Assembly: GCA_963662155.1 (NCBI GenBank) | Contig: OY759265.1 | Span: 45,909,906-45,973,905, forward strand | Length of the DNA: 64,000 nucleotides | Origin: Lamellibrachia columna | Lineage: Eukaryota; Annelida; Polychaeta; Sabellida; Siboglinidae | Direction: 5' to 3' | In this document: in pieces, positions 28,901-31,900 of the stretch | Layout: every line of letters begins with the position of its first letter | How positions within the stretch are numbered: the first letter of the stretch is position 1 | Program-made: the position numbers and the translations under genes | Notes under the pieces: model-generated | Told to the model about the DNA's origin: nothing | The model's database searches: none | The model's input: the letters and a program-made list of their open reading frames with translations, nothing else

Positions 28901-31900
28901 CAGTAATGCTTCTAAACCAGTTTCCAATGGCAGTTAAAAACCATTCTTTTCCGGAAGGCGTACATGCGACAGAACATTATGTTTACTGGTCTTAATTTGA
29001 TTTATTTATTTTTCATTATTTAATTTGGTGTATATTTTAATTTATTAATTTTAATTATTTAATTCCATGTATACTCTTAGTTGTGCTGCTTTTAATTCAA
29101 TATATTATTTAAATCATTTAATTCCTTGTATTACCATGTTCGACCTATTAAGCGTACATGCCCTAATTAGCATAACCCCCTTTCAATCAGCAGGATCCAT
29201 AATTATTTATCCATAATAATTTTATTAGTGTGGAACAACTGAAAAGCTTCACCATTTGGTGTTAAACAGTTGGCACCACTTTTCAGTTGTCTACAGTAGT
29301 CACTAAATGACACCACTAGTGATAAACCGTTACCTTATTGTTTAGAGAAACACTTTTTGGTAATGTCAGATTCCTTGACATTTTTTCATGGCACATTTTT
29401 TTCGAACATATTTTACACTTATTAGGTGGAATACGGTATACTTTTAGTTGTACTATTGTTTTATGTATATATTCTTTAACTATTGTATAGTGCCATAGGG
29501 CATAATTTGTGATTTTATTGTTATTATTATTCTGTTATGTCTGTACATGCCACCACACCTGCACCTACCTGGCCAGCAGCACACAGTCCACACCTGCACC
29601 TACCTGGCCAGCAGCACACAGTCCACACCTGCACTTACCTGGCCAGCAGCACACAGTCCACACCTGCACCTACCTGGCCAGCAGCACACAGTCCACACCT
29701 GCACTTACCTGGCCAGTATCACACAGTCCACACCTGCACCTACCTGGCCAGCAGCACACAGTCCACACCTGCACTTACCTGGCCAGTAGCACACAGTCCA
29801 CACCTGCACTTACCTGGCCAGCAGCACACAGTCCACACCTGCACTTACCTGGCCAGCAGCACACAGTTCACACCTGCACTTACCTGGCCAGCAGCACACA
29901 GTCCACACCTGCACTTACCTGGCCAGCAGCACACAGTCCACACCTGCACTTACTTGGCCAGCAGCACAGTCCACACCTGCACTTACCTGGCCAGTAGCAC
30001 AGTCCACACCTGCACTTACCTGGCCAGCAGCACACAGTCCACACCTGCACTTACCTGGCCAGCAGCACACAGTCCACACCTGCACTTACCTGGCCAGCAG
30101 CACACAGTCCACACCTGCACTTACCTGGCCAGCAGCACACAGTCCACACCTGCACTTACCTGGCCAGCAGCACGCAGTCCACACCTGCACTTACTTGGCC
30201 AGTAGCACACAGTCCACACCTGCACTTACCTGGCCAGCAGCACACAGTCCACACCTGCACTTACCTGGCCAGCAGCACACAGTCCACACCTGCACTTACC
30301 TGGCCAGCAGCACGCAGTCCACACCTGCACTTACCTGGCCAGCAGCACACAGTCCACACCTGCACTTACCTGGCCAGCAGCACGCAGTCCACACCTGCAC
30401 TTACCTGGCCAGTAGCACACAGTCCACACCTGCACTTACCTGGCCAGCAGAACGCAGTCCACACCTGCACTTACCTGGCCAGCAGCACACAGTCCACACC
30501 TGCACTTACCTGGCCAGCAGCACGCAGTCCACCCCATTGATCTTGCCCAAGATCAGTGCATCAGACGGCTAAACACACCACAACAAGTCTACTTCATTAC
30601 GTTGTGTCATATCATTCTCACACAATGAAATACAGGTGGAGACATATCATTCTCACACAGAGGACAATGAACTACAGGCAGAGACATATCATTCTCATAC
30701 AGAGGACAATGAAATACAGGCAGAGACATATCATTCTCATACAGAGGACAATGAAATACAGGCAGAGACATAGCATTCTCATACAGAGGACAATGAAATA
30801 CAGGCAGAGACATAGCATTCTCATACAGAGGACAATGAAATACAGGTGGAGACATATCATTCTCATACAGAGGACAATGAAATACAGGCAGAGACATAGC
30901 ATTCTCATACAGAGGACAATGAACTACAGGCAGAGACATATCATTCTCACACAGAGGACAATGATAGAGACATAGCATTCTCATACAGAGGACAATGAAC
31001 TACAGGCAGAGACATATCATTCTCACACAGAGGACAATGAACTACAGGCAGAGACATATCATTCTCACACAGAGGACAATGAACTACAGGCAGAGACATA
31101 TCATTCTCATACAGAGGACAATGAAATACAGGCAGAGACATAGCATTCTCATACTTAGCTTACTTGATAGCTTACTTGATGCAGAGTGTACACACCCGCC
31201 CGCCCGCCCGCCCGCCCGCCCGCCCGCCCGCCCGCCCGCACCCACCCACCCACCCACCCACCCACCCACCCACCCCCCCACACACACACACACACACACA
31301 CACACACACACACACACACACACACACACACACACACACACACACACACACACACACACACACACACACACACACACACACACACACACACACACACACA
31401 CACACACACACACACACACACACACACACACACACACACACACACACACACACACACACACACACACACACACACACACACACACACACACACACACACA
31501 CACACACACACACACACACACACACACACACACACACACACACACACACACACACACACACACACACACACACACACACACACACACACACACACACACA
31601 CACACACACACACACACACACACACACACACACACACACACACACACACACACACACACACACACACACACACACACACACACACACACACACACACACA
31701 CACACACACACACACACACACACACACACACACACACACATGCACAGTAATTCTAGTAGTGCACATTCAAACTAGTTGGGAATACTCCATCAAGGCTGGA
31801 AGAAACCATGCAGCACTATAGAGGCTGAGCCTTCGGAGAAATTAGGCTAAAGTTTGGAGACCACCCACTAAACCCTAACTCGCTATGCAATTCAAGTATC

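What the first reader, a model, noticed from the sequence alone, without database searches (positions are those of the whole stretch)
29553..30568. MTAP exon 3 end and its splice donor amplified to 28 tandem copies
The sequence shows directly that a 35-bp minisatellite is built from the last 23 bases of a coding exon plus its donor (CAG|GTAAGT), repeated 27 more times into the intron. Most copies are perfect 9-of-9 matches to the U1 snRNA 5' end. Exon 3 ends in phase 2 with AG, so any distal donor makes AG|G TAA, a stop at the boundary; only the proximal donor keeps the enzyme frame. By inference this could be a donor-choice or U1-titration device: distal use gives nonsense mRNA, and clustered U1 sites could also block premature polyadenylation. 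It could equally be neutral slippage that splicing tolerates. I know of no named class of element like this.
Basis: partly seen in the sequence, partly recalled or inferred. Interest (0 to 1): 0.9.

Follow-up and report, generated by a model that had tools for sequence, protein, structure and literature searches.

The report
Exon-edge minisatellite in tubeworm MTAP
In a deep-sea tubeworm, the end of one exon and its splice signal stand 28 times in a row, running into the next intron; this is a striking but already described kind of repeat, most likely harmless, and a good natural test of how cells pick one splice site among many near-identical ones.

Summary
On the minus strand, MTAP exon 3 (30568-30510) ends inside a 35-bp, 28-copy minisatellite (29553-30532). 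Each unit holds 23 exon bases plus the donor; 22 of 28 donors are perfect CAG|GTAAGT. Using any of donors 2-28 puts a stop at the boundary. Exon 4 of the same gene has a second array (5 copies, CAG|GTGAGA). The window matches chromosome 5 of the tubeworm Lamellibrachia columna.

"No named class" is wrong: repeats spanning exon-intron boundaries are called mirages in amphioxus and exon stuttering in chicken. I found further cases in PAN2, DPF, PIK3CA and an LRR gene; the last two lay in an unselected 185-kb sample. The sampled genome is packed with minisatellites (one per 2 kb), so donor-spanning arrays are expected by chance. Donor bases are no better conserved than the rest of the unit (low power), and the stop at the boundary follows from intron phase.

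Best reading: a neutral exon-edge minisatellite, tolerated because exon definition favours the first donor (inferred; no RNA seen). A U1-platform role is not excluded. RNA-seq and a second haplotype exist and could decide.

The parts
30510..30568 (-). MTAP exon 3 (59 nt), ends in phase 2 with AG
29553..30532 (-). 35-bp x 28 minisatellite; each unit = 23 exon bases + 12 intron bases with the donor; the first unit is the real exon end
30504..30515 (-). proximal donor GGCCAG|GTAAGT (last exon base 30510), the only donor of 28 that keeps the MTAP frame
27381..27548 (-). MTAP exon 4 (168 nt), ends in phase 2 with AG
27208..27400 (-). second exon-edge array in the same gene: 5 copies of CTTGACCAGTTCATTGACAG|GTGAGA (20 exon bases), spacings 38, 38, 36, 55 bp
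   Evidence: TRF row 27263-27400; copies found by an exact GACAGGTGAGA
34801..34887 (-). MTAP exon 2 ([11 protein letters not shown]...TPYGK); intron 2 is 4,232 bp
   Evidence: boundaries set by eye
26943..27045 (-). MTAP exon 5 (103 nt); intron 4 is 335 bp, about half of it array
24396..24548 (-). MTAP exon 6 (153 nt)
23568..23660 (-). MTAP exon [23 protein letters not shown]...
   Evidence: boundaries set by eye
22856..22978 (-). MTAP exon [18 protein letters not shown]...
   Evidence: boundaries set by eye
29010..29519 (-). AT-rich part of intron 3 with a cluster of A[A/T]TAAA hexamers on the sense strand, downstream of the array

Best explanation
This is an exon-edge minisatellite of the kind called a mirage. 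Shown: a 35-bp stretch straddling the exon 3/intron 3 junction of an MTAP gene (open over all the exons found) stands in 28 copies that run into the intron, and exon 4 carries a second array of different sequence. Inferred: it arose by an ordinary tandem duplication (a GTGG shared by exon and intron would explain the first step) and grew by slippage or unequal exchange, partly in two-unit blocks, in a genome saturated with minisatellites. It spread without selection for its donors. It is tolerated because exon definition pairs the exon 3 acceptor with the nearest, upstream-most donor (introns 2 and 3 are 4.2 and 3.0 kb); leaky use of later donors gives a stop at the boundary and would be cleared by nonsense-mediated decay.
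For: Anatomy. Two-unit periodicity of variants: lag-2 sharing of non-consensus types 6, permutation p = 0.001; lag 1 p = 0.83. Donor 9-mer no more conserved than the rest: 6/252 vs 13/728 cells, p = 0.60. Minisatellite load: 122 arrays of 15-120 bp period in 248,552 bp including the window, 19% of bases, about a third of that from two very long arrays; 102 arrays in the 184,552 unselected bases. Donor-like motifs are not over-represented in units of the unselected sample: 3 in 4,051 unit bases against 1.30 per kb outside arrays (Poisson P(<=3) = 0.23). Two coding exons in the unselected sample carry such arrays, PIK3CA and an LRR gene; 0.62 expected under uniform placement, P(>=2) = 0.13. Two of 13 loci picked by triple CAGGTAAGT end firmly in coding exons, PAN2 and DPF. 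In human data, among near-equal donors in exons between long introns the upstream one is preferred (PMC9225289, abstract and sections 5 and 6). In amphioxus, Adh3 data and globin RT-PCR suggest that mirages do not disturb splicing (passages of PMC3087553).
Against: No RNA was examined, so proximal-donor use is inferred. In the same human data, without the filter for near-equal strength, all four intron classes preferred the downstream donor (PMC9225289 section 5), and with it the upstream one won in 60% of events overall (section 6), so the preference is a bias only. The 5 copies of the exon-4 array share an identical 26-base exon+donor core while spacers vary in length, which could hint at constraint, though copies were found by an exact 11-base match inside that core. 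Sense-strand A[A/T]TAAA hexamers downstream of the exon 3 array exceed shuffles (11 vs 5.0, p = 0.006; 11 vs 4.0, p = 0.001). Units of the window's own arrays are rich in donor-like motifs (4 in 698 unit bases), though the window was chosen for this. Two of the seven MTAP donors seen lie in arrays, more than the roughly 2% per donor that uniform placement gives.
Confidence: 0.8

Rival explanations
1. Donor-choice nonsense switch: use of a distal donor makes a nonsense mRNA, and the array tunes MTAP output through the ratio of proximal to distal splicing.
For: 27 of 28 exon 3 donors and 4 of 5 exon 4 donors give a stop at the boundary; 22 of 28 donors are perfect consensus.
Against: The stop is automatic for phase-2 junctions of this form; of the six firmly supported exon-edge arrays only the two in MTAP are phase 2, while PAN2 and LRR are phase 0 and DPF and PIK3CA phase 1. 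Donors are no better conserved than the rest of the unit.
Confidence: 0.06
2. U1 platform: clustered U1 sites protect intron 3 from premature cleavage and polyadenylation.
For: Strong U1 pairing computed for the donor types of 26 of 28 units (CAGGTAAGT -13.2, CAGGTAGGT -12.9 kcal/mol; CAAGTAAGT -6.7, counts); excess of A[A/T]TAAA hexamers on the sense strand downstream of the array.
Against: The hexamers lie in one AT-rich stretch that includes a 39-bp tandem duplication; donor bases show no sign of constraint; units of unselected minisatellites are not enriched in donors.
Confidence: 0.05
3. A mutational process that favours splice donors makes arrays at exon edges more often than chance.
For: Two exon-edge arrays among the seven MTAP donors seen, and two in 184,552 unselected bases against 0.62 expected, the latter a lower bound since only strong donors were screened. 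In chicken more than 90% of copied exon pieces lie within 1 base of the exon border (passage of PMC12954441).
Against: The excess in the sample is not significant (P = 0.13); triple CAGGTAAGT matches genome-wide are 458 against 420 for the reversed control, though not resolved into loci; donor density in unselected units is not raised.
Confidence: 0.15
4. Assembly artefact: the array is collapsed or expanded wrongly.
For: Tandem arrays can be misassembled; one amphioxus mirage appears to have been (legend in PMC3087553).
Against: The assembly that the genome matches rests on PacBio HiFi with QV about 54 (PMC13080331), a 1-kb array fits well within a long read, the window holds no N, and units differ by variants along the array.
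Confidence: 0.03

Closest known systems
Mirages: minisatellites spanning exon-intron boundaries in amphioxus (Adh3, globins BflGb6 and BflGb9, TnC; PGBD5 has similar imperfect repeats)
   Same: Tandem units that include an exon edge and its splice site; Adh3 units of 10-72 bp; many copies keep AG/GT signals.
   Different: Annelid, not cephalochordate; 28 copies at one donor; here in a genome with a general excess of minisatellites. Instability and transcripts not tested here.
Exon stuttering (sequence stuttering) in chicken, PMC12954441 (2026)
   Same: Edge of a coding exon with its donor or acceptor copied into the adjacent intron, imperfect tandems, local origin.
   Different: 190 of 236 chicken introns are on dot chromosomes; this is a 63-Mb chromosome at 40.5% GC.
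Intron gain by tandem duplication of AGGT proto-splice sites (Rogers model as cited in PMC3087553; PMC4974935 seen as a listing)
   Same: Duplication of a segment holding AG|GT.
   Different: I saw no new intron or exon here; the copies stay inside an existing intron.
U1 telescripting (recalled)
   Same: Clustered U1 sites upstream of polyadenylation-signal-like hexamers.
   Different: No evidence of function or constraint.

Membership tests
Mirage (boundary-spanning minisatellite) | Tandem repeat whose unit spans an exon-intron boundary of a coding gene | tested here: met
Mirage (boundary-spanning minisatellite) | Copies carry the splice signal | tested here: met
   22 of 28 perfect donors, 28 of 28 with GT; 5 copies in exon 4
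Mirage (boundary-spanning minisatellite) | Normal splicing is not disturbed | not testable with these tools
   no RNA; only indirect: the frame stays open with the proximal donor and the Ridgeia protein has the normal junction
Mirage (boundary-spanning minisatellite) | Length instability between alleles or cells | not testable with these tools
   an alternate haplotype, GCA_963667965.1, is in print but I had no access to it
Exon stuttering (chicken) | Edge of exon plus adjacent splice site copied into the neighbouring intron, exon part 20-187 bp | tested here: met
   23 and 20 exon bases; range
Exon stuttering (chicken) | Concentrated on GC-rich dot chromosomes | tested here: not met
   chromosome 5 of 63.17 Mb, GC 40.5%; so not filed under the avian name
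Regulatory U1 platform / donor switch | Selective constraint on donor bases | tested here: not met
   6/252 vs 13/728, p = 0.60; low power
Regulatory U1 platform / donor switch | Use of distal donors or suppression of intronic polyadenylation in RNA | not testable with these tools
   no reads available

The most novel reading that the evidence does not exclude
The array is a working U1 platform or donor-choice element of MTAP: about 26 strong U1 sites shield the polyadenylation-signal-rich part of intron 3 and, by occasional distal splicing into nonsense mRNA, set MTAP output in proportion to copy number, making minisatellite length a heritable expression dial in tubeworms.
Probability: 0.05. 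Interest if true: 0.8.

Novelty: new member of a known kind. Interest (0 to 1): 0.4.

Why it matters
It takes a curiosity described in amphioxus and lately in chicken to an annelid, and suggests that such arrays are a predictable by-product in an animal genome rich in minisatellites; a rough estimate here is about 2,950 donor-spanning arrays genome-wide (wide error, uniform placement assumed). Each is a ready-made experiment: several near-identical donors in one intron, with the correct answer known from the protein frame. MTAP offers two in one gene, one before a 3-kb intron and one in a 335-bp intron, so exon and intron definition can be set against each other.

Tried and rejected
Genome-wide enrichment of donor arrays: the triple-CAGGTAAGT search gave 458 matches against 420 for the reversed pattern, so raw counts show no clear excess. 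I could not turn the control into loci because that search did not complete. From the 100 places listed (of 458) I grouped 13 loci by hand and fetched one flank of each. Two end firmly in coding exons: PAN2 (Pfam and PDB) and DPF (PDB E 1.3e-11; Pfam gave only an unrelated hit below cut-off). In eight I recognised no exon: L036 (no Pfam match) and L029, L032, L033, L034, L037, L039, L040, judged by eye only. PIK3CA is firm by PDB (E 2.3e-15) but below Pfam's cut-off (22.9 of 26.4 bits).

In the screen of the unselected stretches, eight array/strand rows had two or more donor-like sites with the first near the array start; I recognised a coding exon in two (L014, L028) and none in six, by eye. 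Acceptor-side arrays were not searched for.

Recursive splicing through the units' CAG|GTAAGT was considered and set aside: the stretch before the AG is only about half pyrimidine (by eye); not tested. The nonsense-at-boundary feature was rejected as a hallmark, since it follows from intron phase. I did not find the first or the last coding exon of MTAP. The primary mirage paper (Canestro 2002, PMC117041) is not held and is known only through PMC3087553 and PMC3902484. Papers: PMC3087553, PMC3902484, PMC12954441 and PMC9921365 were seen as passages; PMC13080331 as outline, abstract and sections 14 and 18; PMC9225289 as outline, abstract and sections 5 and 6; the rest as search listings.

Full report
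What is there. On the minus strand of the window lies an MTAP gene. Seven of its exons were located; joined exon translations (234 residues) match MTAP entries of the PDB at E 5.4e-106 over residues 1-231 and a Ridgeia piscesae protein at 90% identity. The first and last coding exons were not found. Exon 3 is 59 nt (30568-30510). Its last 23 bases and the first 12 of the intron form the first unit of a 35-bp minisatellite of 28.1 copies (29553-30532, 95% matches). Of 28 donors, 22 are CAGGTAAGT, 4 CAGGTAGGT (all within the six most distal units) and 2 CAAGTAAGT. Exon 3 ends in phase 2 with AG, so splicing from any of donors 2-28 leaves AGG TAA in frame; a script that joined each version to exon 4 found the stop in 27 of 28.

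Exon 4 of the same gene (27548-27381) has its own array: five copies of 20 exon bases plus CAG|GTGAGA, spaced 38, 38, 36 and 55 bp. Four of its five donors also give a stop at the boundary. So two of the seven MTAP donors seen are in exon-edge arrays.

Which genome. G000 has 879,693,805 bases in 30 contigs, the first seven of 72.70, 67.76, 66.82, 63.57, 63.17, 63.05 and 59.64 Mb. These equal chromosomes 1-7 of Lamellibrachia columna wsLamColu1.1 (879.73 Mb, 42 scaffolds; PMC13080331 section 14); the small differences in total and scaffold number I did not resolve. The window is therefore most likely OY759265.1:45,909,906-45,973,905. That assembly is PacBio HiFi with QV about 54, with an alternate haplotype and one RNA-seq run, so an assembly artefact is unlikely and the key tests are open to others.

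How common it is. I took 20 stretches of 10 kb at regular positions on seven chromosomes (184,552 bases without N). With the window they hold 122 minisatellites of 15-120 bp period in 248,552 bases: one per 2.04 kb and 19% of all bases, about a third of that in two arrays of 7.6 and 8.8 kb (102 of the 122 are in the unselected stretches). In the unselected stretches two arrays start in recognisable coding exons: four copies at a PIK3CA exon (L028, PDB E 2.3e-15) and 10.2 copies at an LRR exon with donor CAG|GTCAGT (L014, Pfam E 1.6e-9). Six other array/strand rows with repeated donor-like sites showed no exon that I recognised. [quoted passage not shown] This assumes average gene density and no selection; my count of two is a lower bound, because only strong donors were screened and acceptors not at all.

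Is there selection or enrichment? Donor 9-mers in the array deviate from consensus in 6 of 252 cells, the other columns in 13 of 728 (p = 0.60); with so few changes power is low. Donor-like motifs occur in units of the unselected minisatellites at 3 per 4,051 unit bases, against 1.30 per kb outside arrays, so units are not enriched; the window's own units hold 4 in 698, but the window was chosen for that. A genome-wide search for three CAGGTAAGT within array-like spacing gave 458 matches against 420 for the reversed pattern. Of 13 loci grouped from the 100 places listed and fetched, two end firmly in coding exons (PAN2; DPF), three are tentative and eight show no exon that I recognise. Against the neutral reading stand an excess of A[A/T]TAAA hexamers on the sense strand downstream of the array (11 against 5.0 or 4.0 in shuffles, p = 0.006 and 0.001), confined to an AT-rich stretch, and the identical 26-base core of the five exon-4 copies.

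How it most likely arose and works. The exon reads ...GGGGTGGACTG and the far edge of the array ...GCAGGTGTGGTGGCATG; joining at the shared GTGG gives the repeat junction, so one microhomology-guided duplication would start it (inference). Variants then recur at every second unit (lag-2 sharing, p = 0.001), as expected of growth in two-unit blocks. For splicing, human data show that among near-equal donors in exons flanked by long introns the upstream one is preferred, and the downstream one when the introns are short; without the filter for equal strength the downstream donor led in all classes (PMC9225289 sections 5 and 6). Introns 2 and 3 are 4,232 and 2,961 bp and most of the 28 donors are identical, so the first donor should be favoured at exon 3; later donors would give nonsense mRNA. 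That this happens in the worm is inferred, not shown.

What it is called. [quoted passage not shown] PMC3902484). Chicken shows the same anatomy under the name exon stuttering, in 236 introns of 115 genes, 190 of those introns on dot chromosomes (passages of PMC12954441). By anatomy the MTAP arrays belong to this kind. Five literature searches on mirages and boundary minisatellites (listing 1 of 1, 25 of 1,036, 9 of 9, 15 of 167 and 15 of 47 papers) and one on tubeworm repeats (12 of 1,454) listed no annelid case that I recognised. The lists are capped and the library lacks most subscription journals, so an annelid report may exist.

Verdict. A real, vivid, but ordinary member of a known kind, most likely neutral. 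Its value is as a natural experiment on donor choice and as a sign that the phenomenon is widespread in this tubeworm genome.

Noticed in passing
L028:8275-8394 and L014:3684-3918: Two more exon-edge donor arrays found in unselected stretches: PIK3CA (30 bp x 4) and an LRR protein (23 bp x 10).
   Followed up: yes
L031, L038: Exon-edge donor arrays at PAN2 and DPF (double PHD finger) exons.
   Followed up: yes
L018:2441-10000 and L009:1185-10000: Very long minisatellites (31 bp x 243 and 68 bp x 129) that fill most of a 10-kb stretch and reach its end.
   Followed up: no
21874-22758: 39-bp x 22.7 array downstream of the MTAP exon at 22856, with alternating unit types (AAGTGAGTCCGCTA / AAGTGAGCACCCTA, by eye).
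   Followed up: no
30622-31740: Intron 2 just upstream of exon 3 holds a 42-bp x 12.9 array followed by CCCG and about 500 bp of CA repeats, so the 59-nt exon 3 sits between arrays.
   Followed up: no
32404-33992 and 35763-37161 (+): Open stretches that look like reverse transcriptase fragments of LINE-like elements (judged by eye from the translations).
   Followed up: no
42507-43250 (+): 247-aa open stretch resembling a tyrosine recombinase (judged by eye).
   Followed up: no
1800-4470 (+): Exons resembling the focal adhesion targeting domain of FAK (recalled resemblance, translations).
   Followed up: no
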